The notes below the pieces were generated by a model. That model saw nothing but the letters and a program-made list of their open reading frames with translations, was not told the DNA's origin and searched no databases. A DNA stretch of 64,000 bases from Sphingomonas panacis (GTDB lineage: Bacteria > Pseudomonadota > Alphaproteobacteria > Sphingomonadales > Sphingomonadaceae): contig NZ_CP014168.1 of NCBI RefSeq assembly GCF_001717955.1, forward strand, positions 2,885,501 through 2,949,500. The letters are read 5' to 3'. Below are positions 8,413 through 25,419 of this stretch, piece after piece. The position numbers and the translations under genes are program-made. How positions within the stretch are numbered: the first letter of the stretch is position 1; every line of letters starts with the position of its first letter.

Positions 8413-9528
8413 TCAGACGCTCAACGGCACCCAGCCGGCACGATCACGGCTGGCGGCGACTGCGGTCGCGATGAACGCCATGCCGCGCAAGCCATCCTCG
8501 ATGCCGGGCAGCAACGGCGCCGGCTCGCCGCGCAGCAGTGCGGCGAAATCGCGGTAGAGATTGGCGAACGCTTCCAGATAACCCTCGGGATGCCCGCCCG
8601 GCGTGCGCGTGCGCGCCGCCGCATCGGCGCCGAGCAGCGCGGTGCCGGCGCGCACCATTGAGCAGCCGCCGTCGAGATCGTAGAGCGTCAGGCTGTTGGG
8701 TTCTTCCTGCTTCCACACCAGCCCGCCACGATCACCATAAGCGCGGATGCGCAAACCGTTGAGTTCGCCGATCTCGATCTGCGAGGTGAGCAGCACGCCG
8801 CGCGCGCCGTTCTCGAAGCGCAGCAGCACGGTGCAATCGTCGTCGAGCGCACGGCCCGGCACCACCGCCGCCAGATCGGCGAGCAGTTCGGTGACGCGCA
8901 GGCCCGTAACGAACTCGGCGAGATGGAGCGCATGCACGCCGATGTCGCCGATGCAGCCACCTTCGCCCGCGCGGGCCGGATCGACTCGCCACTCGGCCTG
9001 TTTGCCGCTGGCTTCGCCCGCGAGCCAGCCTTGTGGATATTCGACCACGACCTTGCGGATCGTGCCCAGCGCGCCCGCTGCGATCCGCGCGCGCGCCTCG
9101 CGCACCAGGGGATAGCCCGAATAGGTGTAGGTGAGCGCATAAGGCAGGGCGGCGCCACGCACCACATCGGCGAGTTCCTGCGCCTCGGCCAGCGTCGCGG
9201 TCGCGGGCTTGTCGCTCAGTACCGGGATGCCGGCCGCGAGCGCGGCGCGCGCGGCGGGAAGGTGGTGATGGTTGGGGCTGACGATCGTGACGAAATCGAC
9301 CCCGTCCGCGCGGGCCGTCTCTCCCGCGATCAGCGCGGCGACATCGGCATAGGCGCGACTCGGGTCGATGCGGTATTGCTCGCCCGCCGCACGTGAGCGC
9401 CCGGCGTTGCTGGAGAACGCACCCGCGACCAACTCGATTTCGCGGTCCAGTTCCGCCGCGATGCGATGGACCGGGCCGATGAACGATCCGGGGCCGCCGC
9501 CGATCATCCCCATTCGCAATCGCCGCAT
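8413..9528 (-). CDS. Gfo/Idh/MocA family oxidoreductase
   Basis: NAD(P)-dependent sugar or inositol dehydrogenase family protein, 371 residues, without an export signal. The Rossmann loop GMIGGGPG is at residues 7-14. The family Lys is in LSDKPATAT, where the more usual Glu-Lys-Pro is Asp-Lys-Pro. The catalytic [10 protein letters not shown] segment is intact. ATG 9528 is chosen because GGAGAG lies seven bases before it; GTG 9534 is possible. Family members oxidise or reduce sugar hydroxyls, including C3 in 3-keto-glycoside metabolism (ThuB-like). It diverges from the MFS gene at 9631, and a TTGACG/TAGAAT promoter is proposed upstream. Substrate inferred only. Confidence 0.87.
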
Positions 9529-9560
9529 CGCCACTCTCCAATGTTATATTTGTAATTACT

Positions 9561-9590
9561 ATTCTATTTTGTTAGCGCATGTCTCGTCAA
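9561..9590 (-). promoter_or_regulatory. Putative promoter for the Gfo/Idh/MocA gene
   Basis: Read on the minus strand there is TTGACG (9590-9585), an 18-base spacer, then TAGAAT (9566-9561), in an unusually AT-rich stretch for this genome. The -35 box is preceded by CTGC, exactly as in the TonB-receptor promoter at 22084-22089. A TGTTAGCGC half-site resembling LacI-family operators lies at 9570-9578 between the boxes. Pattern match only. Confidence 0.4.
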
Positions 9591-9630
9591 GCAGCGAGAC
9601 GGCATAACTCCGTCCGATGGGAGGATTCAG

Positions 9631-10839
9631 ATGCGCGCGATACGCTCCTTCTTCACAGGTCTCACGCTCCGCCCGCAAGGGATTACGGTGGTGGCGGCGG
9701 GATTCCTGCCGATCTTCGCGATCGTTTCGATGTTCCCGATCGTCGCGGCGATGATCCAGCATTTCGCCGACGATCCCGACGCCAAGACCAAGGTGCCGCT
9801 GATGGTGACGGCGCCCGGCCTGACCATCGCGATCCTCGCACCGTTCATGGGCTTTTTCGTCGATCGCTTCGGCAGGCGGCCGCTGCTGCTCGGCTGCACC
9901 TTGCTCTACGGCGTGTTCGGTACGCTGCCGTTCTTCCTGCAAAGCCTCGATTCGATCCTCGCGACGCGGCTGATGCTGGGCGTGTGCGAGGCGGGCATCC
10001 TGACGATCGTCAACACGCTGATCGGCGATTATTGGGACGATCGCGGGCGGCGCAACTGGCTGTTCCTGCAAGGCATGGCGGGGCCGTTCCTGGCGTCGGG
10101 CGTGATATTGCTGTCGGGCACGGTCGCTTCGATGCGGTGGAACGGCGGGTTCCTCGTCTATCTGGTCGCCTTCCCGATCTTCTTCGCGATGGTGCGTTAC
10201 CTGTTCGAGCCGAAGCCGCCCGAAGCGAAGGCCGTCACGGGTGAAACGCCACCGGCGAGTGCGTTTCCGGTCGCCTCGGCGGTGGTGGTCGGGGTGGCGA
10301 CGCTGTTCTGCGCGGCGCTCTATTATGTGTTCATCGTCAACGGCAGTATCGTATTCCAGGAAATCGGCATCAACGATCCGGCAGCGGTCGGCCGGATGAC
10401 GGCGATTCCCAGTCTGTTCATCATGCTCGGCGCGGTGATCTTCCGTTTGCTCTCCGGGCGCGGCAACGCCGTGCAGATCGCGACCTTCCTTGCCCTGATG
10501 GGGCTGGGCCTCGCCGGACTCGGGCTGGCGCGGACGGTGCCGGTGCTGTTTGCATCACTCTGCCTCCAGCAGACCGCTGCCGGCATGGCGGTGCCGACGC
10601 TGATCGCCTGGGCGCAGACCAAATTCCCGTTCGCGCATCGCGGGCGCGGCATGGGCATCTGGAGCAGCGCTTTCTTCCTCGGCCAGTTCGTGTCGCCGCT
10701 GATCGTCCACCGGCTCGATCTCGCCGCCGGATCGATGCAGGGCGCGTTCCTGATCGCGGGTATCGCCGCGCTGGCGGTCACCTTGGTCGCGCTGGCCGCG
10801 TCCCTGCGCGGCGGCACGCCCGCGCTGGCGGGGCGCTGA
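9631..10839 (+). CDS. MFS transporter
   Basis: Major facilitator superfamily permease of 402 residues with about 12 hydrophobic segments. The loop between helices 2 and 3 carries the MFS signature GFFVDRFGRRPLL. A strong GGAGG site lies seven bases before ATG 9631. It runs directly into the secreted esterase gene with no intergenic base, so the two are co-transcribed. It is divergent from the Gfo/Idh/MocA gene and shares its AT-rich control region. Position in the glycoside region suggests import of a sugar or an oxidised sugar, but an efflux role cannot be excluded. Confidence 0.85.
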   Translation: MRAIRSFFTGLTLRPQGITVVAAGFLPIFAIVSMFPIVAAMIQHFADDPDAKTKVPLMVTAPGLTIAILAPFMGFFVDRFGRRPLLLGCTLLYGVFGTLPFFLQSLDSILATRLMLGVCEAGILTIVNTLIGDYWDDRGRRNWLFLQGMAGPFLASGVILLSGTVASMRWNGGFLVYLVAFPIFFAMVRYLFEPKPPEAKAVTGETPPASAFPVASAVVVGVATLFCAALYYVFIVNGSIVFQEIGINDPAAVGRMTAIPSLFIMLGAVIFRLLSGRGNAVQIATFLALMGLGLAGLGLARTVPVLFASLCLQQTAAGMAVPTLIAWAQTKFPFAHRGRGMGIWSSAFFLGQFVSPLIVHRLDLAAGSMQGAFLIAGIAALAVTLVALAASLRGGTPALAGR

Positions 10840-11751
10840 GTGGTGCGAGTCGCACTCGCCGCGCTCGCGCTGCTCGCCGCCGTGCCCGCCATCGCCGCCG
10901 ATGCGCCGCCTGCGTTCACGATCGCGCTGGCGCATCGTCCCGAGGTGCCGGCCGAAATCGCGCTCGGCACGCCGAAGAAACCCGCGATGCCACCCGAACA
11001 ATGGCAGTGGATCAACGGCGATCTCGGTGTCCGCAACGTCTCCGAGGCGACGCTGACCCCGGTGCTGCCACCCGCCGGGGCCGAGACCGGTGCGGCGGTG
11101 ATCGTCGCGCCGGGTGGCGGCTTCCTCGGCCTCGCGATCGATACCGAGGGCTATCGGGTCGCGCATTGGCTCGCCGATCATGGCATCGCCGCGTTCGTGC
11201 TCAAATATCGCACGCTCGCGACACCGGCCGATTTCGCCACCTATCGTCGTGAGATGATCGCGGTCCGTACCGGCACCGGCCCTGCGAGCTTCCGCCCTCC
11301 GGCGGGCACGCCCCCGGAAGCGCTTGCCGACGGCATCGCCGCGCTGAAACTGGTTCATGCTCGTGCGGCGGAATGGAAGATCGACCCGGCGCGGATCGGC
11401 ATGATGGGCTTTTCGGCGGGCGCCTTCACGACGCTGAGTGTCGCGCTCGCAGGCGATCCCGCCGCGCGGCCGGCGTTCATCGCGCCGATCTACGGTCCGC
11501 TCGATGCGGTGCAGGCGCCCGCTGGTGCGCCGCCGATGTTCGTGGCGCTGGCGAGCGACGATCCGTTGTTCTGGACGGGCGGCACCGGCCTGATCAAAAG
11601 CTGGTCGAAGGCACATGCGCTGGTCGAGTTCCACCTCTATCAGCGTGGCGGCCACGGCTTCGGGCTGGGCGCGGCCAGAACCACGACGACCGACTGGATC
11701 GAGGGATTCCGGCGCTGGCTGGAAGCCAACGGGATGTTGCGGACACGGTGA
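10840..11751 (+). CDS. Secreted alpha/beta hydrolase (esterase/lipase-like)
   Basis: Alpha/beta hydrolase of 303 residues with an N-terminal signal peptide (ALAALALLAAVPAIAA, cleavage near residue 20), so probably periplasmic. The oxyanion-hole segment PGGGF is at 91-95, the nucleophile elbow GFSAGA at 190-195 (Ser192), a candidate acid Asp in ASDDPLFW and the His in QRGGHGFGLG. This is the arrangement of acetyl-xylan or carbohydrate esterases of the BD-FAE type. The start is GTG at 10840, the base after the stop of the MFS gene. A likely role is removing acyl groups from an incoming glycoside; this is inferred. A bidirectional hairpin terminator overlaps its stop codon. Confidence 0.85.
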   Translation: MVRVALAALALLAAVPAIAADAPPAFTIALAHRPEVPAEIALGTPKKPAMPPEQWQWINGDLGVRNVSEATLTPVLPPAGAETGAAVIVAPGGGFLGLAIDTEGYRVAHWLADHGIAAFVLKYRTLATPADFATYRREMIAVRTGTGPASFRPPAGTPPEALADGIAALKLVHARAAEWKIDPARIGMMGFSAGAFTTLSVALAGDPAARPAFIAPIYGPLDAVQAPAGAPPMFVALASDDPLFWTGGTGLIKSWSKAHALVEFHLYQRGGHGFGLGAARTTTTDWIEGFRRWLEANGMLRTR

Positions 11752-11777
11752 AATCCTCCGCTCATGCGGAGGATTTT
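11751..11777. terminator. Bidirectional intrinsic terminator
   Basis: A perfect ten-base stem (AAATCCTCCG at 11751-11760, CGGAGGATTT at 11767-11776) with a six-base loop and a run of T on each exit side. It lies between the convergent esterase and GH3 genes, using the last base of the esterase stop codon, and could stop transcription both ways. Confidence 0.8.
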
Positions 11778-11779
11778 GC

Positions 11780-14149
11780 TTACCGCGAGAGCGTAACCAC
11801 CAGCCCGGCATCTTCCGCGTCGCGCGCGACACGCAAGGCGATTTCGCCGGTGATTTCGGCCCAACCATCCTCCGCCCATAGCCGCAGCAGGCGCGGTTCG
11901 ACGGCGATCTCGACGCGACGTTGTTCGGCGGGAGCGAGCGACACTTTCGCAAAACCGAGCAGCGCACATTCGGGCGCGTCGCGATACACCTGCACCACCT
12001 CCGCGCCGGCTCGCGCCGAGACGTTGCGCACCAGCACCGACACCGCGCCGTCCTCGATGCGCACGTCCGACCAGTCGAACCGCGCATAGCCGAAGCCACT
12101 GCCGAGTGCGTGGCGCGCCGGCGTGCCGTTGGCGATCAGCCCGCGATAGCCGAAGCGGGTGCCCTCGTCATAGGCGAGCCGCCCGTCGGCATCGGGGGTC
12201 AGCGCATAGCCGCAATATTCCGATTCGGCGCGCGCGATACTGACCGGCATCCGCCCGCCCGGCTCGCGGTCGCCCGACAGCACGCTCGCGAGCGCGGGCG
12301 CGAAACCTTGGCCCGGATACCATGCCACCATCAGCGCGGCGACCTGATCGCCCCATTCGGCATCGAAGGCGTGGCCGACGTTGACGATCGCGGCGGTGCG
12401 CGGGTTCGCGGCGGCGACCGCCTCGATCAGCGCGAGTTGCTCGGGCGCGAGCCTGGTGTCGGGCCGGTCCTTGCTTTCGACGCTCGAATCGGAGGTTTCG
12501 CCGACGATCAGGAACACCGCATCGGCATCGCGCGCTGCCGCGACCGCGCGGGCGAGCATCGCCGCCGGGCTGTCGGGGGCGCGGAGGCCGTACCACAGGC
12601 CATGAACGCGCGCCGGCGTATAGCCGAACTCGACGGTGACGCGCACCTCCTGTCCGGCCGAAAGCATGACCTCGACACTATCGGCATCGCCGCTTTTCAG
12701 CGCGCCCATCACATCCTTGGCGGGCAGTTCGCGGCCGCCGCGCAGCACTTCGCGCCCATCGATGAGCAGCCGGGCGAGGCCGGTCGCGCCGAGATAGAAG
12801 CGATGCGCGCCATCGGTTTCCGCACGGAATAGCCCGCTGGCGCGCACCGAGCCGGGCTGGTCGAACCGGCCCTGATCGTGGACGCCGACGAACCATACCA
12901 ACGAGTTGGTCGCGCGCGTCTCGCTGAAGCGCGGTGTGCCCGAGCAATCCGTGCTGTCGAAATAGTCGAGCGTCATGCCGCTCACGCAGCCGTCGCCGAT
13001 GTCGCGACCAGGTGCTACCGGCATTGCGGGCAGGCGCGGTTGCGGATCGACGCCGGGTTCGAACACGATCTCGCAGTCGGCGCCATAGCGCGCGCGGATC
13101 GCGGCGACCGGCGTCGGCGTGTCGGGCGATACCGAGATTTTGGCGAAGGTGCCGCCCTGATAGCAGGGCGCGGCGGCGTTCGGGCCGATCACCGCGATCC
13201 GCTTCACTACGCCGGGCGCGAGCGGCAGCAGATCGCCTTGGTTGCGCAGCAGCACGAAGCCTTCGGCGGCGGCCTGTTCGAGAATATCGGCGGCCTCTTC
13301 GGGTGCGGGCGGGGTCTTCGGTCCGGTCACGCGCCGCGCGGTCGCGGCGACGCGCGCTGCGGCATCGCGCACGCGGGCGGGATCTACCCGGCCGGCCGTC
13401 ACCGCCTCGGCGATTTTCGGCCCCATGAAGCGCGCCGGGCCGGGCATCTCCAGATCGAGTCCGCTGGTGATCGTGCCCTCGGTCGAATGCGTGCCGAACC
13501 AGTCGCTCATCACCAGATAGGGGAAGCGCCATTCGTCCTTGACGATGCGGGTGATGACGTGCGCCTGTTCCGAGCACCAATCGCCGTTGACGCGATTATA
13601 CGCGGCCAGCATCCCCACGCAGCCGGCGGCGGCGGCGAGCTCGAACGGCAGCAAATACACTTCGCGCAGTGTGCGTTCATCGACCCGGACATCGACGAAG
13701 TCGCGCCCGGTCTCGCTGTCGTTGCAGACGAGGTGTTTGGCGACCGATCCGGTGCCGGTCGATTGCAGTCCAGTGATCCACGCCGCACCGAGCACGCCCG
13801 CCAGCAGCGGATCTTCCGAGAAATATTCGAAGGCGCGGCCAGCGAGCGGGCTTCGCGCGAGGTTGACGTTGGGCGCGAGCACCGCATCGACGTCGCGCGC
13901 GACCGCGTCGCCGCCGATCATCCGACCGACCTCGGCGACCAGCGCGACGTTCCAGCTCGCGCCGAGCGCGGTGGGGCAGGGGCTGAGCAGCGAGACTTCG
14001 CGCTCGTCGATCCGGCCGCTGGCGATTCCCATCGGTCCGTCGGCCATGCTGAACGACGGGATATCCGCGTCCGCAATCGCAACGCTCGTCCACATCGTCG
14101 CGCCCGCCGTCAGCGTGGCGGCTTCGGTCAGGGTCAATGCGCGGGTCAT
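11780..14149 (-). CDS. Glycoside hydrolase family 3 beta-glucosidase with PA14-like insert
   Basis: GH3 glycosidase of 789 residues with the usual layout. The TIM-barrel domain has KHLVCNDSE near 139 and the nucleophile motif VMSDWFG with Asp216. The alpha/beta sandwich follows, with a PA14-like insertion around 410-540 that shapes the substrate pocket in known members, and a fibronectin-III-like C-terminus. No signal peptide is visible, so the enzyme should act in the cytoplasm. The frame is open 200 codons further upstream, but ATG 14149 fits the family and overlaps the stop of the flavin reductase gene (ATGA). Last gene of the monooxygenase-reductase-glycosidase operon. Probably releases terminal sugars from beta-glycosides. 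Confidence 0.92.
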   Translation of the reverse strand: MTRALTLTEAATLTAGATMWTSVAIADADIPSFSMADGPMGIASGRIDEREVSLLSPCPTALGASWNVALVAEVGRMIGGDAVARDVDAVLAPNVNLARSPLAGRAFEYFSEDPLLAGVLGAAWITGLQSTGTGSVAKHLVCNDSETGRDFVDVRVDERTLREVYLLPFELAAAAGCVGMLAAYNRVNGDWCSEQAHVITRIVKDEWRFPYLVMSDWFGTHSTEGTITSGLDLEMPGPARFMGPKIAEAVTAGRVDPARVRDAAARVAATARRVTGPKTPPAPEEAADILEQAAAEGFVLLRNQGDLLPLAPGVVKRIAVIGPNAAAPCYQGGTFAKISVSPDTPTPVAAIRARYGADCEIVFEPGVDPQPRLPAMPVAPGRDIGDGCVSGMTLDYFDSTDCSGTPRFSETRATNSLVWFVGVHDQGRFDQPGSVRASGLFRAETDGAHRFYLGATGLARLLIDGREVLRGGRELPAKDVMGALKSGDADSVEVMLSAGQEVRVTVEFGYTPARVHGLWYGLRAPDSPAAMLARAVAAARDADAVFLIVGETSDSSVESKDRPDTRLAPEQLALIEAVAAANPRTAAIVNVGHAFDAEWGDQVAALMVAWYPGQGFAPALASVLSGDREPGGRMPVSIARAESEYCGYALTPDADGRLAYDEGTRFGYRGLIANGTPARHALGSGFGYARFDWSDVRIEDGAVSVLVRNVSARAGAEVVQVYRDAPECALLGFAKVSLAPAEQRRVEIAVEPRLLRLWAEDGWAEITGEIALRVARDAEDAGLVVTLSR

Positions 14150-14712
14150 GCCGCCTCCGATACTCCGAACGTCATGATCTGGCGCGCCTGCAACGCCACC
14201 TGCGCGGCGATACCGGCATCGATGAGCGTGCCGTCGGCACCGAACGGCTTCTGTTCGATCGAGTTGATCGCGATGCCGACCGGGGTCGGCCAGCCGCGCA
14301 TCGCGTGGACGATGCCGCGCAACGCGGCGAGCGTCACGCCGCCCGCCTGCCATCCCGCCGCCGAGACGATCAGCCCGATCGGCATCCCGTCGAAATAGAC
14401 GCGCGCGTCGCCGCGGGTGTCTTCGAGCAGGTCGATCGCGTTCTTGACGAGGCCGGAGACGCCGCCGTGATAGCCGGGGCTGGCGATCACCAGCGCATCG
14501 GCCGCGCGTACCGCTGCGACCAGCGCCTGCTCGGCGGCGTTGCGGGTCGGCGCCTCTGGGTTGAAGTGCGGCAGCTCGCTGAGTGCGATGCCGTCGAACA
14601 TCACCGCCTCCGCACCCAGCGCCGCACATTCCGCCAGCACCGCGCGCGCGAGCATTTCGCTCGACGACCGCGGCCTGAGCGTGCCGCCGATCCCGACGAC
14701 CCGGCGCGCCAT
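14146..14712 (-). CDS. NAD(P)H-dependent FMN reductase
   Basis: Flavodoxin-fold reductase of 188 residues. The phosphate-binding loop GGTLRPRSSS is at 9-18 and the flavin-contacting SPGYHGGVSG at about 78-87, as in SsuE/MsuE-type reductases that hand reduced FMN to a partner monooxygenase. Its ATG shares one base with the stop of the luciferase-like gene (TGATG), and its stop overlaps the GH3 start (ATGA). This is strong evidence that it serves the adjacent monooxygenase as the reductase half of a two-component system. Cytoplasmic. Confidence 0.88.
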   Translation of the reverse strand: MARRVVGIGGTLRPRSSSEMLARAVLAECAALGAEAVMFDGIALSELPHFNPEAPTRNAAEQALVAAVRAADALVIASPGYHGGVSGLVKNAIDLLEDTRGDARVYFDGMPIGLIVSAAGWQAGGVTLAALRGIVHAMRGWPTPVGIAINSIEQKPFGADGTLIDAGIAAQVALQARQIMTFGVSEAA

Positions 14713-15809
14713 CAGGCGAACGCGGGCATGACCTTGCTCGAAAGCAGGTCAAGTGTCTGGTTGGCGAAGCCGAGCCGCTGCTCGGTGAGCGGGCCGGTGG
14801 TGGTGCCGCACAGCACGTTGCCGATGCCGAGTTCCTGGTACGGCTTGAGGTGTTCGATCACCGTTTCGGGCGAGCCGTACAGGCACCACGTCCCGATCCA
14901 GCCATCGTCGAGCGCGTTGACGTTGACGTCTTGCTTCTTGTTGGCGTCGTCCGCCTCGGCACGGCGGTTGAACGCGTTCTCGCGATCGACCGCGTCCTGA
15001 TAGCCCTTGAGGATGATCTCAAGTTCCTCGCGCGCCTGTTCGTCGGTCTCGGCGATGTGGACACACTGATAGGTGTGCGTCGTCCAGTCGAGCGCCGCCG
15101 CGATCGCGGCTTGGTCGTGGCCAGCCTCATCGAGCAGGCGGCGATAGTTGCCGAAATGCTTGGTGACGTGCGCGAGTGGCTCGGTGCCGTAGATCTGCGG
15201 CGGGGTGAAGGCCGGGATGAAGGCGGGCCAGGCGTTCTCGGCGGCGCGGCGCGCGCTCGATTCGCGGAAGGCGACCGGCATCAGCCGGGCGTGGTGCTCG
15301 CCATAGGGTGTCGGCGTGATGCGCTGGAGCACGCGCCCCTGATACGGCCCGTTGTCGATCACCACGGCGGGATCGTCCATCCGCTTCGCCCAGAGTTCTT
15401 CGGCGGTCGCGAGGTTCTTCTCGGCGAGCGCGCTGGCTTCCTTGTAGTTGACCGCGAAGCCGATCATCTCCTCGGGCGTGGTGCCCGAGCCGATGCCGAC
15501 GAGCAGCTTGCCCTTGGTGAGATGGTCGAGCACGTTGATCCGTTCGGCGAAGCGCACGGGATGGTGCAGCGGCACCGACACCACCGAGAAGCCGAAATAC
15601 ATCTCGGGCATCCGCGCGGCGAGATAAGCGGCGAGCAGGAAGCTATCGCTCGCGACCGGCATGTACCCGTTGAAATGGTGATCTGGCATGAAGATCGCCG
15701 AGAAACCGAGATCGCCGGCGCGCTCGGCATGGTCGATCAGATCGGTGATGAGGCGACCGTCTTCTTCTGGCTTTGTCGAACGAGCGTTGAGGAACACCGA
15801 AAACCGCAT
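14712..15809 (-). CDS. LLM-class flavin-dependent monooxygenase (luciferase-like)
   Basis: Bacterial-luciferase-fold protein of 365 residues. The N-terminus (FSVFLNAR, then IFMPDHHFNGYMP) and the LLVGIGSGTTPEEM stretch are typical of FMNH2-dependent monooxygenases. A very strong purine-rich ribosome-binding site (GGAGGAGGGG) precedes the ATG. The flavin reductase follows with a one-base overlap and a GH3 glycosidase follows that, so one transcript encodes oxygenase, reductase and sugar remover. This suggests oxygenative attack on the aglycone of a glycoside. First gene of the operon, with a TTGACA/TACTAT promoter candidate upstream. Substrate unknown. Confidence 0.87.
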   Translation of the reverse strand: MRFSVFLNARSTKPEEDGRLITDLIDHAERAGDLGFSAIFMPDHHFNGYMPVASDSFLLAAYLAARMPEMYFGFSVVSVPLHHPVRFAERINVLDHLTKGKLLVGIGSGTTPEEMIGFAVNYKEASALAEKNLATAEELWAKRMDDPAVVIDNGPYQGRVLQRITPTPYGEHHARLMPVAFRESSARRAAENAWPAFIPAFTPPQIYGTEPLAHVTKHFGNYRRLLDEAGHDQAAIAAALDWTTHTYQCVHIAETDEQAREELEIILKGYQDAVDRENAFNRRAEADDANKKQDVNVNALDDGWIGTWCLYGSPETVIEHLKPYQELGIGNVLCGTTTGPLTEQRLGFANQTLDLLSSKVMPAFA

Positions 15810-15849
15810 TTTTCCCCTCCTCCATTTTAGAATTAGCGTTCGTATTTCG

Positions 15850-15876
15850 ATAGTATTCGGAAGACGTTGTTGTCAA
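15850..15876 (-). promoter_or_regulatory. Putative promoter of the monooxygenase operon
   Basis: On the minus strand a perfect TTGACA (15876-15871) is followed after 15 bases by TACTAT (15855-15850), within the 148 bp between the monooxygenase start and the end of the MFS gene. The near-direct repeat GTATTTCG/GTATTCG overlaps the -10 box and could be an operator. Same 15-base spacing as the TonB-receptor promoter. Pattern match only. Confidence 0.45.
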
Positions 15877-15957
15877 GCGCCGGCCACAGGATGTTTGCGC
15901 TTGCTCATCGTTTTTCCCGAGGGTGATGAGAACGCAATTCCAATATCGAAGGTGCGA

Positions 15958-19061: not shown

Positions 19062-19690
19062 CCGAAATCGACCGCGCTCCAGTCGCTGGAAAAGGCGGGG
19101 GTATGCGGGGCAAGCGGTAGGTCGGGATCGAAGCGGCCGGGATCGAGCACGTAGCGTAGCTCCCGCGACCCACCCGCTTGCGATGTGTAATAGCCAGTGA
19201 GGATCAGCGCCTTGAGCGCGCGCCACGGGTGTTTGTCGGCGCCTTGCGCGAACGCCTCGGCATCGAGCCGGGCGAGCGCGGCGCTTTGTTCGGCGGGTTT
19301 GCGCGCCAGCCAGTCGCTGCGTCCGCGCGCGTCGAGCGCATCCTCTAGCCAGTCAAGGAAGCGGAGCGATCCGTCCGGGCGCTGGAAGCGTGCGAGCTGT
19401 GGCATGCCCGCCGCTCCGCTCGGCGCGCGGGTGCCGTCCAGGCCGTGCGCCAGCGCGAGGATCACGAAATCGCCGACCCCCACGTCGCCCGCGCCCGGCG
19501 TCGCGGTGCGCGGGATGACGTGCTGGCTGGCGGCGGTGATGATCGCGCGCTGCCGGTCGGTCGGTGCGTCGTCTGCCGATAAGGCCGAGAGCGACACCAC
19601 TGCCGCCGGCACGCCGATCGCCGCCGCGAGCAAGGCAATGCCGCCGATCAGCTCACGCCGGTTCCACTGCTTTGCCTCACTCACGGTCAT
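19058..19690 (-). CDS. Gluconate 2-dehydrogenase subunit 3 family protein (Tat-exported)
   Basis: Small subunit of a membrane-associated flavin dehydrogenase, 210 residues. The N-terminus has a twin-arginine-like signal (NRRELIGG, Arg11-Arg12, then a hydrophobic stretch to about residue 38), consistent with Tat export of the folded complex. The remainder matches the helical gluconate_2-dh3 family. ATG 19690 has AGGAG just upstream and the gene begins 13 bp after the TonB receptor stop. Its stop overlaps the start of the GMC gene. In known systems this subunit acts as chaperone and export partner of the large subunit and is needed for activity. Confidence 0.88.
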   Translation of the reverse strand: MTVSEAKQWNRRELIGGIALLAAAIGVPAAVVSLSALSADDAPTDRQRAIITAASQHVIPRTATPGAGDVGVGDFVILALAHGLDGTRAPSGAAGMPQLARFQRPDGSLRFLDWLEDALDARGRSDWLARKPAEQSAALARLDAEAFAQGADKHPWRALKALILTGYYTSQAGGSRELRYVLDPGRFDPDLPLAPHTPAFSSDWSAVDFG

Positions 19691-19703
19691 GTCTCCTGAT
19701 CGA

Positions 19704-22004
19704 TCAGAAGTCGATCGACACCCGCGCGCCGTAGGTGCGCGGCGCACTGAACTGCCAGTTGATGATATCGTCGGTCCCGGCCGCAACGTAGGAGGCATAC
19801 ACCAGCGGCCGGATGTTCTCGAGGTTGCGGGCAAACACCTGCACCCCGAATTTCCCGTTCTCCGGCCTGTACTCCAGGCTCAGGTCGGTCTGGGTATAGG
19901 CCTTCTGCTGCGAGTCGCGGTAATTGTAGAAGTCGAGATAGTAATCGCTCTTGAACCGCGAGTAGGCGCGCGCCGTGAGCTTGCCCGACGAACCGAGATC
20001 GAAGACGTGATCGTAACCGACACCGATCACAAACGTCGGTGCTTGCGGCAGCCGGTTGCCCTTCAGGTTGGGGTTCTCGGCCGTCGAGAGAGAGGTCAGG
20101 TTCGGGTTCGCCGAGTCGAGCACGACGTAAGACGCGATGAAGTTGTCGTAGCGCGCGTGCAGATAGTTGAACGACGCAGTGAAGGTATCGCGCGGCGACA
20201 GCCGGATCGTCGATTCGGCCTCGACGCCGTATATCGTCGCGGCGCCCGAATTGAGCGTCTGCGCACCCGTAACATTGTTGAGCAGGACGTCGTTCTGCAA
20301 GTCCTTATAATCGTAGTAGAAGCCTGAAATGTTGAAGATGTTGTGATGCCCAGGCCCGTAATTGAGCTTTAGGCCACCTTCATACGCGGTGTTGTTCTCG
20401 GGCCGGAAGTTCGCCCCGGTGGCGTCGAAGCCGCCCGCCTTGTAGCCGGTCGAAACTTTGGCGTAGATCAGCGTATCGTTGTTGGGCTTGTAGTTCAGCC
20501 CGCCGAGCCAGGTGATCTTGTCGCCCGAATAATAGAGCGGGACTGGCGTCGGCACCGCCGAGGTTTTGGTCAGATCGACATAGCCCGAATTGAACGAGAA
20601 GCCGTAGTTGGAGAAGTTCGCGCTGCGCCGGTCCTTGGTATAGCGCAAACCGCCAACCGCGGTGATTTGGTCGGTGAGGCCATATTCCGCCTGCCCGAAT
20701 GCCGACCAGCTCTGGGTGTCGGTAGGATGGACCGGATAGGTGATGTACGAACCCTTTGGGCCGATGAACGGGCTGTACAAGCCGCCGTTGGTGTCCAGCA
20801 ATTCCTTGAAGAAGAACCCGCCGAACTGCCATTTGAAGCGGCCTTCCTCGCCGTTCAGCCGCAGTTCGTGGCTTTGCGTCTTCACCGATGCGCCGAAATT
20901 GGAAAAGGCATACGCGGGGGAGAGCGAGTTGAACCCGGTGTTCGAGGTTTCGCGATAGCCGCCGGTATAGGTCAGCGTCGCCGGGCCGAAATTATAGGCG
21001 ATGCGGCCGCGTACCGCAGTCGAGATCTGGTCGAACTTGCCGACGCCGGTCAGCGGCATATTGTAATTGCCGCGATCGACCTTGCTGAGGAAGTTGGTGT
21101 TCTGCGGAATGCACTGCACGCCCGGCGTGATTGGCCCGACCTCGACGAAGCCGCTCGCCGAGCAGCCGCCAGCGGCGTTGAGATCCTGATACGCCTGCAC
21201 CGCCGGGATGATGTGCATCTCGTCGTGTTCGACCGAGGCGTTAATCTCGAGACCCGCAAGCGGTTCGAGCCGCAGCGAGCCGCGCACGCCCCAGGTGTTG
21301 TCATTGCCGCTGCGATGCCCGCCGTCGTCCGCTTTGAACTGCGGAAGCGAGATTGGCGTGTTCGGGCTGTAAACATAGCCGTCGTGGTAGGAATAGGTGC
21401 CCGCCACGCGGAACGCACCGACGTCGCCGAGCGGAACGTCGACGCCGCCCTCGGCGATCACCGCATTATAATTGCCATAGCTGACCGATCCGTTGACGCG
21501 GAATTCGTCGCCAGGCTTGCGCGTGATGAAATTGACCGCGCCGGCGGTCGAGTTGCGGCCATACAATGTGCCCTGCGGGCCGCGCAGCACCTCGACGCGT
21601 TCGAGATCGAAGATCGCCGCGTTCAGGATGGTCGGGCGGTTGATATACTCGCCATCGATATTGACCGCGACCGACTGGTCCTGCGCCTCGTTGTTGCTGA
21701 GCGTACCGATGCCGCGCACGCTGACGCGCGTGTTGGTGGTGTCGCTCGTCACCTGAAGCGCAGGCGAGACTTTGGCGACCGAGGTGAAATCGGTCACGCC
21801 CTGCGCCTTCAGCGTGTCGCCGCTGATCACCGAGATCGCGATCGGCACGTCCTGCACACTCTCGGCGCGGTTCTGCGCGGTGACGATGATGTCCGGGATC
21901 GTGTCGTCGCCCGGCGCGGTGGCCGGTGCTTGCTGGGCCATCGCGGCGCTGCTCGCCAGCAGGCTTGCTCCAGCCATCAGAACCCGAATCGAGTTGTAGC
22001 GCAT
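19704..22004 (-). CDS. TonB-dependent receptor
   Basis: Outer-membrane receptor of 766 residues for active uptake of a substrate too large or scarce for porins. Signal peptide MRYNSIRVLMAGASLLASSA, a TonB-box-like DIIVTAQNR, a plug domain (LRGPQGTLYGRNSTAGAVN) and a barrel ending in the terminal Phe of VSIDF are all visible. ATG 22004 is preferred over in-frame ATGs at 22013 and 22040 because it alone starts a clean signal peptide and has GGGGAGG nine bases upstream. First gene of the operon with the GMC dehydrogenase. By context it imports the glycoside that is then oxidised; the ligand is unproven. Confidence 0.93.
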   Translation of the reverse strand: MRYNSIRVLMAGASLLASSAAMAQQAPATAPGDDTIPDIIVTAQNRAESVQDVPIAISVISGDTLKAQGVTDFTSVAKVSPALQVTSDTTNTRVSVRGIGTLSNNEAQDQSVAVNIDGEYINRPTILNAAIFDLERVEVLRGPQGTLYGRNSTAGAVNFITRKPGDEFRVNGSVSYGNYNAVIAEGGVDVPLGDVGAFRVAGTYSYHDGYVYSPNTPISLPQFKADDGGHRSGNDNTWGVRGSLRLEPLAGLEINASVEHDEMHIIPAVQAYQDLNAAGGCSASGFVEVGPITPGVQCIPQNTNFLSKVDRGNYNMPLTGVGKFDQISTAVRGRIAYNFGPATLTYTGGYRETSNTGFNSLSPAYAFSNFGASVKTQSHELRLNGEEGRFKWQFGGFFFKELLDTNGGLYSPFIGPKGSYITYPVHPTDTQSWSAFGQAEYGLTDQITAVGGLRYTKDRRSANFSNYGFSFNSGYVDLTKTSAVPTPVPLYYSGDKITWLGGLNYKPNNDTLIYAKVSTGYKAGGFDATGANFRPENNTAYEGGLKLNYGPGHHNIFNISGFYYDYKDLQNDVLLNNVTGAQTLNSGAATIYGVEAESTIRLSPRDTFTASFNYLHARYDNFIASYVVLDSANPNLTSLSTAENPNLKGNRLPQAPTFVIGVGYDHVFDLGSSGKLTARAYSRFKSDYYLDFYNYRDSQQKAYTQTDLSLEYRPENGKFGVQVFARNLENIRPLVYASYVAAGTDDIINWQFSAPRTYGARVSIDF

Positions 22005-22062
22005 GTGAACCATCCTCCCCACAACGATGACTGTCGTCATTCGAAATAAAATAATGGTTCCA

Positions 22063-22089
22063 ATAATATCTGATTCGCGATGGTGTCAA
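22063..22089 (-). promoter_or_regulatory. Putative promoter of the TonB receptor-GMC operon
   Basis: On the minus strand a perfect TTGACA (22089-22084), a 15-base spacer and TATTAT (22068-22063). A TGGTTCCA palindrome overlaps the region just downstream (22055-22062) and is a candidate operator. The intergenic stretch 22005-22302 also serves the divergent TIM-barrel gene; its AT-rich part at 22180-22215 may hold that promoter. Pattern match only. Confidence 0.5.
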
Positions 22090-22302
22090 GCAGGGGCGCA
22101 ATGACCTGGATCAAAAACGCGCAGATGCGCCGATACTGCTGCGGCGCAACAATCTTGTGCGTATGCGAACGTATTTTACGCTCGACATAAAGAATTGAAG
22201 TTCTAATTATAAATGAAAGCACGGCGTGGGCGGATCGAACGAGATCGGCCAGGCGCGGACACACAAGCGTGTTCAGCGCCAAAGCGCCAATGGAGAGGTT
22301 GA

Positions 22303-23088
22303 ATGAACATGCAGGTTTCCCCGAAATTGTCACCGTGTGTCGAGTGGATTTTCGCGGAAGAACATCCGGCCATGCCCGATCGTATCCGCGCGGCGCGCGC
22401 GGCGGGCTATGACACGGTCGAATTCCATCTGTGGCGCGACAAGGATGTCGACGCGATCGCCGAATCGCTGGCCGAAACCGGCGTGAAGCTGACCGGCATC
22501 GTCGTCGAACCCCGCCGCAGCATCGTCGATCCCGCCCAGCACGGCGAATTCCTGCAAGCGGTGCGCGAGAGCCTCGTCACCGCCAAGACGCTCGGCTCGC
22601 CGCCGCTCGTCGTCGCCTCGGGCTTCACGCGGGAGGGCGTGAGCCAGCAGGAGCATGTCGCCGCCGCGATCGACGCGCTCAAGCAAGCCGCCGCACTTGC
22701 CGAAGAGGCCGGCATCCTGCTCGTGCTCGAGCCGCTCAACGATCGCGTCGAGCATCCCGGCATGTTCCTCGTCAGCACAAAGCTCGCGCTCGATATCATC
22801 GAAGCGGTCGACAGCCCTAATCTGCGGCTGCTCTACGACGTGTACCATTCGGTGGTGATGGGCGAGGACATGGCCGATGTGTTGAACGGCCGCGTGCATC
22901 TCGTCGCGCACGTCCAACTCGCCGACACGCCCGGCCGCCACGAGCCCGGCACGGGTACGATCGATTGGCCCGCGACGCTCAAGGCGCTCGACGAGCTTGG
23001 CTATACCGGCGCCTACGGGCTCGAATACAAACCGACCGCGCCTGCGCTCGAATCGCTCGAACGGACGCGCGCGACGCTGGAGGGCTGA
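22303..23088 (+). CDS. Hydroxypyruvate isomerase family TIM barrel
   Basis: Xylose-isomerase-like TIM barrel of 261 residues, the length of hydroxypyruvate isomerases. Key segments are VEFHLW, the metal-binding EPLND, YDVYHSVVMGED, and LADTPGRHEPGTG, which closely resembles the conserved tail of the Hyi family. No signal peptide, so cytoplasmic. GGAGAGG precedes the ATG. A GPH-type transporter follows after four bases and a ThuA protein after that. Despite the Hyi likeness, the setting (GMC dehydrogenase, Gfo/Idh/MocA, ThuA) makes isomerisation or elimination on an oxidised sugar as likely as action on hydroxypyruvate. Confidence 0.83.
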   Translation: MNMQVSPKLSPCVEWIFAEEHPAMPDRIRAARAAGYDTVEFHLWRDKDVDAIAESLAETGVKLTGIVVEPRRSIVDPAQHGEFLQAVRESLVTAKTLGSPPLVVASGFTREGVSQQEHVAAAIDALKQAAALAEEAGILLVLEPLNDRVEHPGMFLVSTKLALDIIEAVDSPNLRLLYDVYHSVVMGEDMADVLNGRVHLVAHVQLADTPGRHEPGTGTIDWPATLKALDELGYTGAYGLEYKPTAPALESLERTRATLEG

Positions 23089-23092
23089 CGCG

Positions 23093-24436
23093 ATGCGGGC
23101 GGCGGTGAGGGGGGCGCCGAAGCTGGGCTTCGTCGAGAAGCTCAGCTACGGGTTCGGCGACTTCGGGTACAGCCTGGCCTATAATATGGTCAGTGCGTTT
23201 CTGCTGTATTATTACACCGTCGTGCTCAAGCTACCGGCCGCGGCGGTGGGGACGTTGTTCCTCACCGCGCGGCTGCTCGATGCGGTCATCGACATTGGCG
23301 TCGGCATCCTGGTCGATCGCACGCGCACGCGCTGGGGGCGGACACGCCCGTACTTCCTGTTCACCGCATTGCCCTACTGCGGGATCTTCCTCGCGATCTT
23401 CCTGGTGCCGGACTGGGGTGTCGATGCGCAGCTCGTCTGGGCGTTCGTCACCTTCAACCTGCTCGGCGTGCTGATGTCGTTCGGCTCGATCCCCTATACC
23501 GCGCTGATGCCGATGATGACCGAGGCGACTGACGAACGTCTGAAGCTCGGCAGTATGCGATCGATCGGCACGTCGGTGTCGGTGATTCTCGGCACGGCGG
23601 CGACGATGCCGCTGGTCGGGCTGTTCGGCGGCGGCGACGAACGGCGCGGGTTCCTGCTCGTCGCGGTGCTGTTCGCCGCGCTGTCGCTGGTCGCGCTCAC
23701 CGCGTTGTTCCGCAATTGCCGCGAGCGTTTCCACGATGCCGCGCCGGTCGGCATGCCGGTTTTCACCGGCATCGGCGAGATGCTGCGCAACCGGGCGTGG
23801 TGGGTCTGCTTCCTGTTCGCCTTGCTCTATTTCGTGCGCTTCGGCGCGATGATCTCGGTGACGGCGTTCTTCGCGATCCATGTGCTCGGGCGGCCGTGGA
23901 TGATCTCGGTGATGCTGCCGGCGATCTCGGGGCTGCTGCTGCTCTCGGCGTTCCTCGCGCCGCCGATCCTGTCGCGGACGGGCATCCGCACGGGCTGTTT
24001 CGGCGCGCTGGTGCTGTCGATCGCGCTGTTCGCGGCGCTGCCCTTCACCGAGGCGAACCCGGTGGCGTTCCTGTCGCTCTATTTCGCCGCGTCGATCGCG
24101 ACCTCGATGACGATCACCGGCATCTTCGCGATGGCGGCGGAGGCGGTCGATTACCACGAGGCGCGCTTTGGAGTGCGCAATGAAGGGCTGCTGTCCTCCG
24201 GCATCAGCCTCGCCACCAAGATCGGCATGGCGATGGGCACCGCCGCGATCGCCTATGCGCTCGCCTTCGCCGCCTTCACGCCCGACCATGTCAGCGATGG
24301 TGCGCGCGCGACGATTCGCTGGTCCTATTACGGCTGGCCGATCGTGCTGCTCATGCTTCAGGCGGTGGTGATCCTGTTCTGGCCGATGAACGCGGCCACC
24401 GCGAAAGACCGCGAGCGCGCACCGCTTACCGCCTGA
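23093..24436 (+). CDS. MFS transporter, GPH (melibiose permease-like) family
   Basis: Glycoside-pentoside-hexuronide type symporter of 447 residues. The signature of the family is clear: SYGFGDFGYSLAYN at the start and DRTRTRWGRTRPY in the first cytoplasmic loop. GPH members usually import sugars or glycosides with Na+ or H+. ATG 23093 lies four bases after the TIM-barrel stop, so the two are co-transcribed. This is the most convincing sugar importer of the three MFS proteins here and probably brings a sugar or oxidised glycoside across the inner membrane. Confidence 0.88.
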   Translation: MRAAVRGAPKLGFVEKLSYGFGDFGYSLAYNMVSAFLLYYYTVVLKLPAAAVGTLFLTARLLDAVIDIGVGILVDRTRTRWGRTRPYFLFTALPYCGIFLAIFLVPDWGVDAQLVWAFVTFNLLGVLMSFGSIPYTALMPMMTEATDERLKLGSMRSIGTSVSVILGTAATMPLVGLFGGGDERRGFLLVAVLFAALSLVALTALFRNCRERFHDAAPVGMPVFTGIGEMLRNRAWWVCFLFALLYFVRFGAMISVTAFFAIHVLGRPWMISVMLPAISGLLLLSAFLAPPILSRTGIRTGCFGALVLSIALFAALPFTEANPVAFLSLYFAASIATSMTITGIFAMAAEAVDYHEARFGVRNEGLLSSGISLATKIGMAMGTAAIAYALAFAAFTPDHVSDGARATIRWSYYGWPIVLLMLQAVVILFWPMNAATAKDRERAPLTA

Positions 24437-24468
24437 GTGTTGAACCGATATAAAACGGGAGAGACGGC

Positions 24469-25419
24469 ATGAAGTACCGAATGATGACGGCTGCCTTGCT
24501 GGCTTTTGGTGTCGTGCCCGCTGGCGCGCAGGTGATCGTCCACCCCAGTTACCGCCCGCCCGAGACCGTTCAGCGCGTCGCCATCCCGGCCGACCCGACC
24601 GAAAAGCGCATTCGTGTCCTCATCATCAGCGGCCAGAACAGCTACGAGCATGACTGGACCGGCATCGACAACATGCTGCGCACGATGATGCAGGACACCG
24701 GCCGCTTCGACGTCCGCGTCACCGAGGATTTCGACCAGGGCAATCTCGCGATGCTGAAAGGCTATGACGTGGTGCTGCTCAACTATTCGAGCCGCTGGGT
24801 GTATGATGACCAGAAGGAACACCGCTGGTCGCCTGAAGCCGAAAAGGCGCTGTTCGATTATGTGAAGCAGGGCGGCGGGTTGGTCGCCTACCATTCGTCG
24901 TTCACCTGGGGGTATAACTGGCCCGAGTATAAGGCGCTGGTCGGCGGGGTGATGGACCCGATCCACGGCAGCCGCCGTTCGCCGCCGGGTGCGTTCCCGA
25001 TCCATATCGTCGATCGCGACAACCCGATCACGGCGGGGATGCGCGAGTATATCTGGACGTACAACGACGACATGTACACCAACATGAGCTTCGCGCCCGG
25101 CGCCAAGCTCCACGTCCTCGCCACCGCGCGCGACAGCTCGGCGAGCTATGATCCCAAGCTGACCGGGCCGAAATATCCGATTGCCGCCTATACGCCCGAG
25201 AAGCTCAAGGCGATGAAGGGGATGGACGCCGATCACCCGCAGGTGTGGACTCAGGATTACGGCAAGGGCCGCGTCTTCTCGATCACGCTGGGGCATGACG
25301 AGGTCTCACTCCACTTCCAGCCGCTCCAGACGTTGCTGCTGCGCGGCACCGAATGGGCGGCGACCGGCGAGGTGACTCTGCCGGTGCTCGAAGAGGCGAA
25401 GGAGTATCCGACCAAGTGA
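24469..25419 (+). CDS. Secreted ThuA-domain protein
   Basis: ThuA-like (trehalose-utilisation type) protein of 316 residues with a glutamine-amidotransferase-like fold. Signal peptide MKYRMMTAALLAFGVVPAGA, so periplasmic. Family segments include VLIISGQNSYEHDW, VLLNYSSRW and GGGLVAYHSSF. It lies 32 bp after the GPH transporter with a good ribosome-binding site (ACGGGAGAG). ThuA proteins occur in sugar-utilisation operons, including trehalose catabolism through 3-keto intermediates, and their catalytic role remains poorly understood. Last gene of the TIM barrel-transporter-ThuA operon. It strengthens the case that the region handles oxidised glycosides. Confidence 0.87.
   Translation: MKYRMMTAALLAFGVVPAGAQVIVHPSYRPPETVQRVAIPADPTEKRIRVLIISGQNSYEHDWTGIDNMLRTMMQDTGRFDVRVTEDFDQGNLAMLKGYDVVLLNYSSRWVYDDQKEHRWSPEAEKALFDYVKQGGGLVAYHSSFTWGYNWPEYKALVGGVMDPIHGSRRSPPGAFPIHIVDRDNPITAGMREYIWTYNDDMYTNMSFAPGAKLHVLATARDSSASYDPKLTGPKYPIAAYTPEKLKAMKGMDADHPQVWTQDYGKGRVFSITLGHDEVSLHFQPLQTLLLRGTEWAATGEVTLPVLEEAKEYPTK

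What the first reader, a model, noticed from the sequence alone, without database searches (positions are those of the whole stretch)
8413..25419. Candidate oxidative glycoside-degradation island (3-keto-type)
In 17 kb I see a TonB receptor, a Tat-exported small subunit plus GMC dehydrogenase with a 3Fe-4S-type cysteine motif, a GPH sugar importer, a Gfo/Idh/MocA dehydrogenase, a hydroxypyruvate-isomerase-like TIM barrel, a secreted ThuA protein, a secreted esterase and a GH3 glycosidase. GMC/gluconate_2-dh3 pairs, Gfo/Idh/MocA, xylose-isomerase-like TIM barrels and ThuA are exactly the families found in glucoside 3-dehydrogenase and 3-keto-trehalose/3-keto-glycoside pathways. Inference: the cell imports a glycoside, oxidises a sugar hydroxyl in the periplasm and splits it inside. 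The extra flavin monooxygenase pair and the further TIM barrel at 5915 make this combination unusual.
Basis: partly seen in the sequence, partly recalled or inferred. Interest (0 to 1): 0.78.

Follow-up and report, generated by a model that had tools for sequence, protein, structure and literature searches.

The report
Sphingomonad aryl C-/O-glycoside degradation island
This stretch of a Sphingomonas-type chromosome most likely lets the cell strip glucose from plant aryl glycosides, probably including hard-to-cut carbon-linked flavonoid glycosides, by oxidising the sugar first, and then feed on both halves; the chemistry is known elsewhere, but this gene set is a new version of it.

Summary
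The core reading (3-keto-type oxidative deglycosylation) is well supported and can be sharpened. The 'extra' TIM barrel at 5915 is an orthologue-level match (605 bits) to a solved 2-hydroxy-3-keto-glucal hydratase. With the Gfo/Idh/MocA gene and the Tat-subunit/GMC pair it gives candidates for three of the four steps of the oxidation-elimination-hydration-reduction pathway. The cleaving enzyme is not in the window: the genome's one C-glycoside deglycosidase (alpha/beta, active-site residues kept) lies 0.79 Mb away. In 121 genomes of the genus, all 15 with this GMC type carry the deglycosidase beta-subunit gene, against 2 of 106 others; in 14 of the 15 it sits within about 8 kb of the GMC. The luciferase-type monooxygenase and the hydroxypyruvate-isomerase-like barrel follow the same distribution. 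The island also reaches past its stated start: an aromatic ring-cleavage cassette runs from about 2.6 kb upstream of the window to 2737, so the aglycone is probably phenolic, perhaps flavonoid-type. Serine dehydratase and three other interspersed genes do not belong. Substrates and activities are inferred, not shown. Verdict: real; a new variant of a known pathway.

The parts
1..987 (+). alpha/beta hydrolase (385 aa; starts about 170 bases before the window); candidate hydrolase of the aglycone pathway
   Evidence: family recurs in 17 of 80 GMC loci
984..1763 (+). PF04199 cyclase-type protein, aglycone cassette
   Evidence: 9 of 80 loci
1760..2737 (+). fumarylacetoacetate-hydrolase family protein, aglycone cassette
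   Evidence: 15 of 80 loci
5915..6970 (-). 2-hydroxy-3-keto-glucal hydratase orthologue (HYD)
   Evidence: 605 bits to PDB 8ro4 over its whole length; 31 of 80 loci
8413..9534 (-). Gfo/Idh/MocA oxidoreductase (GFO), candidate 3-keto-glucose reductase
   Evidence: 29 of 80 loci, adjacent to HYD in 26 of 80
9631..10839 (+). MFS transporter (MFS-U)
   Evidence: 41 of 80 loci
10840..11751 (+). alpha/beta hydrolase (esterase-like) with signal-like start
   Evidence: 12 of 80 loci
11780..14149 (-). GH3 glycosidase, beta-glucosidase type with PA14
   Evidence: 31 of 80 loci
14146..14712 (-). NADPH-dependent FMN reductase family protein
   Evidence: 13 of 80 loci, next to LLM in 12
14712..15809 (-). 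luciferase-like FMN monooxygenase (LLM), candidate aglycone monooxygenase
   Evidence: in 15 of 121 genomes, all 15 with CGDB
15958..17361 (-). DHA2-like MFS transporter (MFS-E)
   Evidence: 49 of 80 loci
17358..19061 (-). GMC flavoprotein (type A), candidate aryl-glycoside 3-dehydrogenase
19058..19690 (-). Gluconate_2-dh3 small subunit with twin-arginine start (DH3)
   Evidence: adjacent to GMC in 57 of 80 loci
19704..22004 (-). TonB-dependent receptor
   Evidence: 24 of 80 loci
22303..23088 (+). hydroxypyruvate-isomerase-like TIM barrel (HPI), candidate keto-sugar isomerase/epimerase
   Evidence: in 14 of 121 genomes, all 14 with CGDB
23093..24436 (+). GPH-family sugar symporter
   Evidence: 25 of 80 loci
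24469..25419 (+). ThuA-domain protein with signal-like start
   Evidence: 10 of 80 loci

Best explanation
A catabolic island for aryl glucosides, including aryl C-glucosides. Inferred route: the TonB receptor brings the glycoside into the periplasm; the Tat-exported DH3 subunit carries the GMC flavoprotein out, and this pair oxidises the sugar 3-OH, passing electrons to the respiratory chain; GPH/MFS carriers import the 3-keto-glycoside; the C-glycoside deglycosidase alpha/beta (encoded 0.79 Mb away) beta-eliminates the aglycone, leaving 2-hydroxy-3-keto-glucal; HYD (5915) adds water to give 3-keto-glucose; GFO (8413) reduces it to glucose. GH3 would handle ordinary O-glucosides. The aglycone, probably a phenol of flavonoid type, is hydroxylated (LLM/FMN reductase is the local candidate) and ring-cleaved by the VOC dioxygenase and hydrolases of the upstream cassette. 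Shown: gene content, orthology-level similarity of HYD, conserved active-site residues, linkage and co-distribution. Inferred: substrate, direction of GFO, the roles of LLM, HPI and ThuA, compartments.
For: HYD: 605 bits to 8ro4. The A. tumefaciens operon GlycDH-OGE-HYD-Gfo is proposed to do oxidation, elimination, hydration and reduction; GlycDH of Rhizobium, expressed with a Tat-signal protein, oxidises flavonoid C- and O-glucosides (PMC10628242, passages). Croceicoccus marinus has TBDR-HPI-GPH-ThuA, CGD alpha/beta, GH3-GFO-HYD-DH3-GMC in one stretch. Type-A GMC versus CGDB over 121 genomes: 15 both, 0 GMC-A only, 2 CGDB only, 104 neither (Fisher p 2.5e-17); LLM 15/0/2/104; HPI 14/0/3/104; controls: type-B GMC 12/60/5/44 (p 0.43), HYD 16/61/1/43 (p 0.005) (tests). 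CGD alpha and beta both in 33 of 80 GMC loci. Own CGD alpha: 357 bits to 8qvc and 138 to 7bvr (same sequence as 7exz, the PuCGE entry), with Mn-ligand and catalytic positions kept by motif and spacing, and 86.6% identical to the one near S. pokkalii's GMC. Aglycone genes recur in the same loci.
Against: In this genome CGD is not linked to the island; where S. pokkalii has GPH-CGD the window has GPH-ThuA. 45 of 80 GMC loci show no CGD within about 10 kb (five of these had no usable gene calls, several are cut by contig ends). No orthologue of the island-type FAD monooxygenase in the genome (only a 40% match), and no match to the cupin used as query (an empty answer without a positive control). 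S. populi, the nearest relative found, lacks most of HPI. One CGDB genome (G040) has LLM, HPI, VOC and HYD but no type-A GMC, so another oxidase may serve. The genomes are related, so the p-values overstate independence; the type-A cut-off was set after seeing the gap between 72% and 51%. In the ifc cluster, disrupting the alpha/beta hydrolase did not affect daidzein degradation (PMC11069340). No activity data.
Confidence: 0.68

Rival explanations
1. An O-glucoside-only 3-keto pathway: GMC/DH3, HYD and GFO process ordinary plant O-glucosides (with an unidentified eliminase or ThuA), and the distant CGD is an unrelated remnant.
For: CGD is unlinked here; GH3 and the esterase-like hydrolase are O-glycoside/ester enzymes. 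Type-B-like loci of Erythrobacteraceae (L083, L089; GMC 52% and 49%) hold GFO-HYD-MFS-DH3-GMC plus a TIM barrel with a signal-like start and no CGD in the stretch.
Against: In 121 genomes type-A GMC is never found without CGDB, whereas type-B GMC shows no association. PF06439 3-keto-disaccharide hydrolase was not found in the genome. PuCGE also cuts a 3-keto-O-glucoside (PMC10628242), so the two readings overlap.
Confidence: 0.2
2. Several independent catabolic modules (GH3/LLM, HPI-GPH-ThuA, GMC-DH3, HYD, GFO, ring cleavage) lie side by side without forming one pathway.
For: Order is strongly shuffled between genomes, HYD and GFO are separated by serine dehydratase here, and VOC occurs without CGDB in 11 of its 27 genomes.
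Against: The same genes recur together in different orders and genera, while four interspersed window genes recur in 0, 0, 0 and 1 of 80 loci; LLM and HPI have CGDB in 15 of 15 and 14 of 14 genomes.
Confidence: 0.08
3. GMC/DH3 oxidises a non-sugar alcohol or a non-phenolic (for example steroid or terpenoid) glycoside.
For: The only full-length solved relatives of the GMC listed are fructose and glucose dehydrogenases, at modest scores (144 and 124 bits); no substrate data.
Against: The attached cassette has an extradiol-dioxygenase-family protein with an invariant His-His-Glu set; a similar cassette in Sphingomonas sp. R1 lies near pobA and ligA; the CGDs described in the passages read act on C-glycosylated phenolics (PMC8563793).
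Confidence: 0.04

Closest known systems
Agrobacterium tumefaciens GlycDH-OGE-HYD-Gfo operon (PMC10628242, passages read)
   Same: Four-step logic; HYD-type hydratase; flavin dehydrogenase with a Tat-signal partner; Gfo reductase
   Different: The best Rhizobium GMC in the plasmid listing is 33% identical to the window's (GlycDH itself was not compared); OGE structure 8BVK was not among the matches of either window TIM barrel at E 1e-5; TonB/GPH genes, where ABC-transporter genes stand beside HYD in one A. tumefaciens plasmid; an aromatic cassette is attached
C-glycoside deglycosidases PuCGE/DgpBC, CarBC, AgCGD (PMC8563793, passages) and PurBC (PMC12724307, abstract)
   Same: The genome's CGD alpha/beta has the same two-subunit build and metal/catalytic residues
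   Different: Known systems pair CGD with Gfo-type DgpA (gut; PMC11239390, search listing) or an FAD oxidase (soil; PMC12724307); here the co-distributed partner is a GMC/DH3 pair
fde (naringenin) and ifc (isoflavone) A-ring pathways (PMC11069340, PMC11303751, passages)
   Same: Same family set in relatives: FAD monooxygenase, glyoxalase-type dioxygenase, alpha/beta hydrolase, cupin
   Different: This genome has no orthologue of the island-type FAD monooxygenase and has LLM/FMN reductase; no direct comparison with FdeC/IfcB was possible
Caulobacter lacABC/DUF1080 lactose pathway (PMC9007349, passages)
   Same: Periplasmic sugar 3-dehydrogenation
   Different: No DUF1080 (PF06439) match in this genome

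Membership tests
Oxidation-elimination-hydration-reduction glycoside pathway | 2-hydroxy-3-keto-glucal hydratase | tested here: met
   605 bits, full length, to 8ro4; by sequence only
Oxidation-elimination-hydration-reduction glycoside pathway | flavin dehydrogenase with Tat-exported partner | tested here: met
   GMC plus PF13618 subunit with RR start; RR within the first 45 residues in 53 of 55 homologues; 3-oxidation itself untested
Oxidation-elimination-hydration-reduction glycoside pathway | 3-keto-glycoside eliminase in the gene cluster | tested here: not met
   no CGD and no recognisable OGE in the window; CGD alpha/beta at 3.694 Mb of the same contig, 0.79 Mb away
Oxidation-elimination-hydration-reduction glycoside pathway | Gfo/Idh/MocA reductase | tested here: met
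   GFO-HYD adjacent in 26 of 80 loci; activity untested
Oxidation-elimination-hydration-reduction glycoside pathway | enzyme activities on a glycoside | not testable with these tools
   needs bench assays
C-glycoside deglycosidase (own genome, L011) | alpha TIM barrel plus CGDB beta subunit | tested here: met
   PF19906 at 145 bits next to the alpha subunit
C-glycoside deglycosidase (own genome, L011) | Mn ligands E, D, H, K, E and catalytic H, E | tested here: met
   E143, D175, H259, K261, E295, H145, E297, assigned by motif and spacing against the numbering in PMC8563793 and the 7bvr alignment
Glycoside 3-oxidase / C-glycoside oxidase (PsG3Ox, PurA) | close sequence relationship to these O2-using GMC oxidases | tested here: not met
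   best match fructose dehydrogenase large subunit, full length; 7qf8 and the pyranose oxidases listed match only the C-terminal part; PurA itself was not compared
fde/ifc flavonoid pathway | FAD monooxygenase of the FdeE/IfcA type | tested here: not met
   only a 40% match in own genome to the FAD monooxygenase of the TomTYG65 cluster; FdeE/IfcA themselves were not compared
fde/ifc flavonoid pathway | glyoxalase-type extradiol dioxygenase | tested here: inconclusive
   extradiol family with invariant H142, H196, E247 (reading them as the metal triad is recalled); not compared with FdeC/IfcB
3-keto-disaccharide hydrolase pathway (lac/trehalose type) | PF06439 hydrolase | tested here: not met
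   0 matches in the genome; 4 of 14 control genomes rang, 3 over the cut-off

The most novel reading that the evidence does not exclude
The luciferase-like monooxygenase/FMN reductase pair is an undescribed dedicated enzyme of aryl-C-glycoside catabolism in sphingomonads: a two-component flavin monooxygenase that readies the freed aglycone for ring cleavage and can take the place of the FdeE/IfcA-type hydroxylase. All 15 genomes of 121 with it carry CGDB, and 6 of the 7 genomes that have the ring-cleavage dioxygenase but no FAD-monooxygenase orthologue have it. Together with the DH3/GMC dehydrogenase this would be a third natural way to start C-glycoside breakdown, beside the Gfo-type DgpA and the O2-using oxidases.
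Probability: 0.35. Interest if true: 0.75.

Novelty: new variant of a known kind. Interest (0 to 1): 0.62.

Why it matters
Carbon-linked plant glycosides resist ordinary glycosidases, and the papers seen here place their characterised bacterial breakdown in gut bacteria and soil Actinobacteria. A sphingomonad system would extend the trait to bacteria common on leaves, roots and in water (recalled ecology). It would use a dehydrogenase where soil Actinobacteria use an oxidase, couple deglycosylation to aglycone catabolism, and give three testable genes of unknown role (LLM, HPI, ThuA).

Tried and rejected
HPI-like barrel as the eliminase: rejected as first choice, because its conserved set E143, D179, Q205, E241 and its nearest folds (3ngf, 1k77, then 3-keto-glucoside 4-epimerase 6wn6) point to an isomerase/epimerase. 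Recalled, not from a call: that E-D-Q-E is the hydroxypyruvate-isomerase metal site.

3-keto-disaccharide hydrolase route: rejected, no PF06439 match.

LLM simply as a replacement of the FAD monooxygenase: not adopted in that plain form, since 9 of 15 LLM genomes also have the FAD monooxygenase at 63% identity or more; LLM follows CGD instead. The LLM model (mean pLDDT 79.8) matched general luciferase-type monooxygenases and no single clear function.

Serine dehydratase (7033), acetyl-CoA synthetase-like gene (2748), 4823 and 5437 as members: rejected.

Sequence link of VOC to non-sphingomonad flavonoid clusters: in the plasmid listing (50 of 456 records shown) the best matches are sphingomonads and other alphaproteobacteria at 49% or more, then Actinobacteria at about 43%. 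A Rhodococcus neighbourhood opened from it shows a ring-hydroxylating dioxygenase pathway, not a flavonoid one, so the flavonoid reading does not rest on it.

Literature: ten searches listed no paper on a sphingomonad CGD/GMC island. They cover open-licence PMC only, and the longer result lists were capped (for example 15 of 46 shown, 12 of 124, 15 of 526,782). Recalled and not seen: the Angewandte 2024 paper on the non-hydrolytic glucoside pathway (a DOI I gave from memory was not held), the Deinococcus aerius C-glucosyl cluster paper (thought to be the source of 8qvc), and the 2024 Nature paper on 3-keto glycan breakdown.


Full report
WHAT IS THERE. The finding is confirmed gene by gene. 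On the minus strand a run reads TonB receptor (22004) - DH3 - GMC - DHA2-like MFS, then LLM - FMN reductase - GH3 (down to 11780). DH3/GMC, GMC/MFS, LLM/FMN reductase and FMN reductase/GH3 overlap by 1 to 4 bases (coordinates), as in operons. Divergent from it runs HPI-like TIM barrel - GPH symporter - ThuA (22303-25419). Further left lie an MFS and an esterase-like gene (+), GFO (-) and HYD (-). The genome is 5.32 Mb in 2 contigs and the window is C1:2885501-2949500. The nearest relative among the loci found is Sphingomonas populi (GMC 97%).

THE KEY IDENTIFICATION. The TIM barrel at 5915-6970, an aside in the finding, matches PDB 8ro4, named '2-hydroxy-3-keto-glucal hydratase', at 605 bits from residue 1 to 350; the next solved relative scores 153 bits. 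In Agrobacterium the proposed four-enzyme route is C3 oxidation by the flavoenzyme GlycDH, beta-elimination to 2-hydroxy-3-keto-glucal, hydration (preliminary evidence in that paper) and reduction by a Gfo enzyme; the Rhizobium GlycDH was expressed together with a Tat-signal protein (PMC10628242, passages). The window has candidates for steps 1, 3 and 4. The GFO protein is close to solved oxidoreductases that carry no functional name (3v5n at 334 bits).

THE MISSING STEP. In other sphingomonads the same genes stand with C-glycoside deglycosidase (CGD) alpha and beta; Croceicoccus marinus has the whole set in one stretch. The window has no CGD, but the genome has one beta subunit (PF19906), beside an alpha subunit and a TetR gene in an otherwise unrelated neighbourhood, 0.79 Mb from the GMC. 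The alpha subunit scores 357 bits to 8qvc and 138 bits to 7bvr (same-sequence entries 7drd and 7exz; 7EXZ is PuCGE in PMC10628242). It keeps the Mn ligands and catalytic His/Glu by motif and spacing, and is 86.6% identical to the alpha subunit 5.5 kb from the GMC of S. pokkalii.

CO-OCCURRENCE, NEIGHBOURHOODS. My gene caller found no GMC-cluster gene in 5 of the 80 (L070, L071, L073, L082, L090); these count as misses. Recurrence in the 80: DH3 57, MFS-E 49, MFS-U 41, CGD beta 34, CGD alpha 34 (both 33, either 35), HYD 31, GH3 31, GFO 29, GPH 25, TonB 24, TetR 22, VOC 17, alpha/beta hydrolase 17, HPI 17, LLM 16, FAH 15, FAD monooxygenase 13, FMN reductase 13, esterase-like 12, Rieske 12, ThuA 10, SnoaL 10, PF04199 cyclase 9, cupin 9, LysR 6; interspersed window genes 0, 0, 0 and 1. 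Of the 17 VOC loci, 12 have the FAD monooxygenase, 5 have LLM only and none has neither; the window is of the LLM-only kind, while C. marinus, outside the 80, shows neither in its stretch. One search gives the counts over 87 loci (the 80 plus L002, L003, L005, L006, L007, L011 and the window). A GMC tree of 81 rows forces at least 14 changes of the label 'CGD in the locus', so linkage was made or broken many times (quick tree, several long branches).

CO-OCCURRENCE, WHOLE GENOMES. CGDB is in 17 genomes: all 15 with type A, and 2 of the other 106. In 14 of the 15 a CGDB lies 0.1-8.0 kb from the type-A GMC (in G110 the nearer one is a partial profile match and a full one lies 23 kb away); the exception is the window's own genome. 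LLM: 15 genomes, all with CGDB. HPI: 14, all with CGDB. VOC: 27, of which 16 with CGDB. HYD: 77, of which 16 with CGDB. Type-B GMC: no association (CGDB in 12 of 72 with it and 5 of 49 without it). Sources; sets entered by hand and Fisher tests. The cut between types was chosen after seeing the gap, and the genomes share ancestry, so the p-values are indicative only. G039 has CGDB without a GMC match; G040 has CGDB, LLM, HPI, VOC and HYD on one contig without a type-A GMC.

THE AGLYCONE SIDE. The island reaches left of the window: LysR (-2572..-1667), a two-domain VOC dioxygenase (-1534..-632), a SnoaL-like protein (-632..-237), an alpha/beta hydrolase (-170..987), PF04199 cyclase (984-1763) and FAA hydrolase (1760-2737). 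The VOC protein belongs to the extradiol dioxygenases and has H142, H196 and E247 in at least 97% of 20 sequences (reading them as the metal triad is recalled). In Sphingobium TomTYG65 FAD monooxygenase-VOC-hydrolase-cyclase-FAH runs directly into GFO-HYD. In Sphingomonas sp. R1 a cassette annotated TonB-FAD oxidoreductase-VOC-hydrolase-MFS-cupin-epimerase/dehydratase-FAH starts about 4 kb from pobA and 8 kb from ligA. The isoflavone (ifc) pathway uses the same families, with similarity to the naringenin (fde) genes (PMC11069340, passages; PMC11303751, passages); there, disruption of the alpha/beta hydrolase had no effect on daidzein degradation. A flavonoid-type aglycone is therefore the best guess but is not shown, and no direct comparison with FdeC/IfcB could be made. 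This genome lacks an orthologue of the FAD monooxygenase (best 40%).

ROLES STILL OPEN. LLM/FMN reductase: solved relatives are general luciferase-type monooxygenases. LLM is well conserved (mean 80% identity over 11 loci, against 75% for the GMC in the same loci; alpha/beta hydrolase 84% and cyclase 84% over 8 and 4 loci). HPI: predicted fold (pLDDT 94) closest to the hydroxypyruvate-isomerase family, then to 3-keto-glucoside 4-epimerase and tagatose epimerases. S. populi keeps only about the first 88 bases of it, so it is not always needed. ThuA has no assigned role here.

MECHANISM. Shown: content, orthology-level similarity of HYD, active-site residues of CGD, a twin-arginine start in DH3, linkage and co-distribution. 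Inferred: that GMC/DH3 oxidises C3 of an aryl glucoside in the periplasm, that import follows oxidation, that the distant CGD does the cleavage, and that GFO works as a reductase.

NOVELTY. The chemistry is known. The parts read on C-glycoside enzymes describe gut and soil systems. Words beginning 'Sphingo' do not occur in the main text of PMC8563793 and PMC10646112, nor 'Sphingomonas' or 'Novosphingobium' in PMC12724307, although PMC10628242 says that such enzymes are broadly distributed in soil and marine bacteria. I file it as a new variant: GMC/DH3 dehydrogenase partner, TonB/GPH uptake, attached aglycone pathway, LLM companion.

Noticed in passing
L083:5746-12528, L089:5792-12558: Erythrobacteraceae loci with a 52% and 49% identical GMC hold GFO-HYD-MFS-DH3-GMC followed by a TIM-barrel protein with a signal-like start; it could be a periplasmic O-glycoside eliminase.
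   Followed up: partly
L063:6645-7051: S. populi lacks most of the HPI gene between GPH and the TonB receptor; its sequence aligns with the window to about 88 bases into the gene and then stops.
   Followed up: partly
L011:9177-11388: A lone CGD alpha/beta plus TetR group in an unrelated neighbourhood; the TetR resembles those in other islands (72% to L037).
   Followed up: partly
window:33659-43825: A run of genes that look like cobalamin (B12) assembly and uptake by their N-termini and order; not checked with profiles.
   Followed up: no
window:43886-44902: A second luciferase-like monooxygenase (PF00296), outside the island.
   Followed up: no
L094:1-20704: Sphingomonas sp. R1 plasmid from tomato rhizosphere carries a FAD oxidoreductase/VOC/cupin/FAH cassette near pobA and ligA, with no GMC or CGD annotated in the stretch shown.
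   Followed up: no
   Followed up: no
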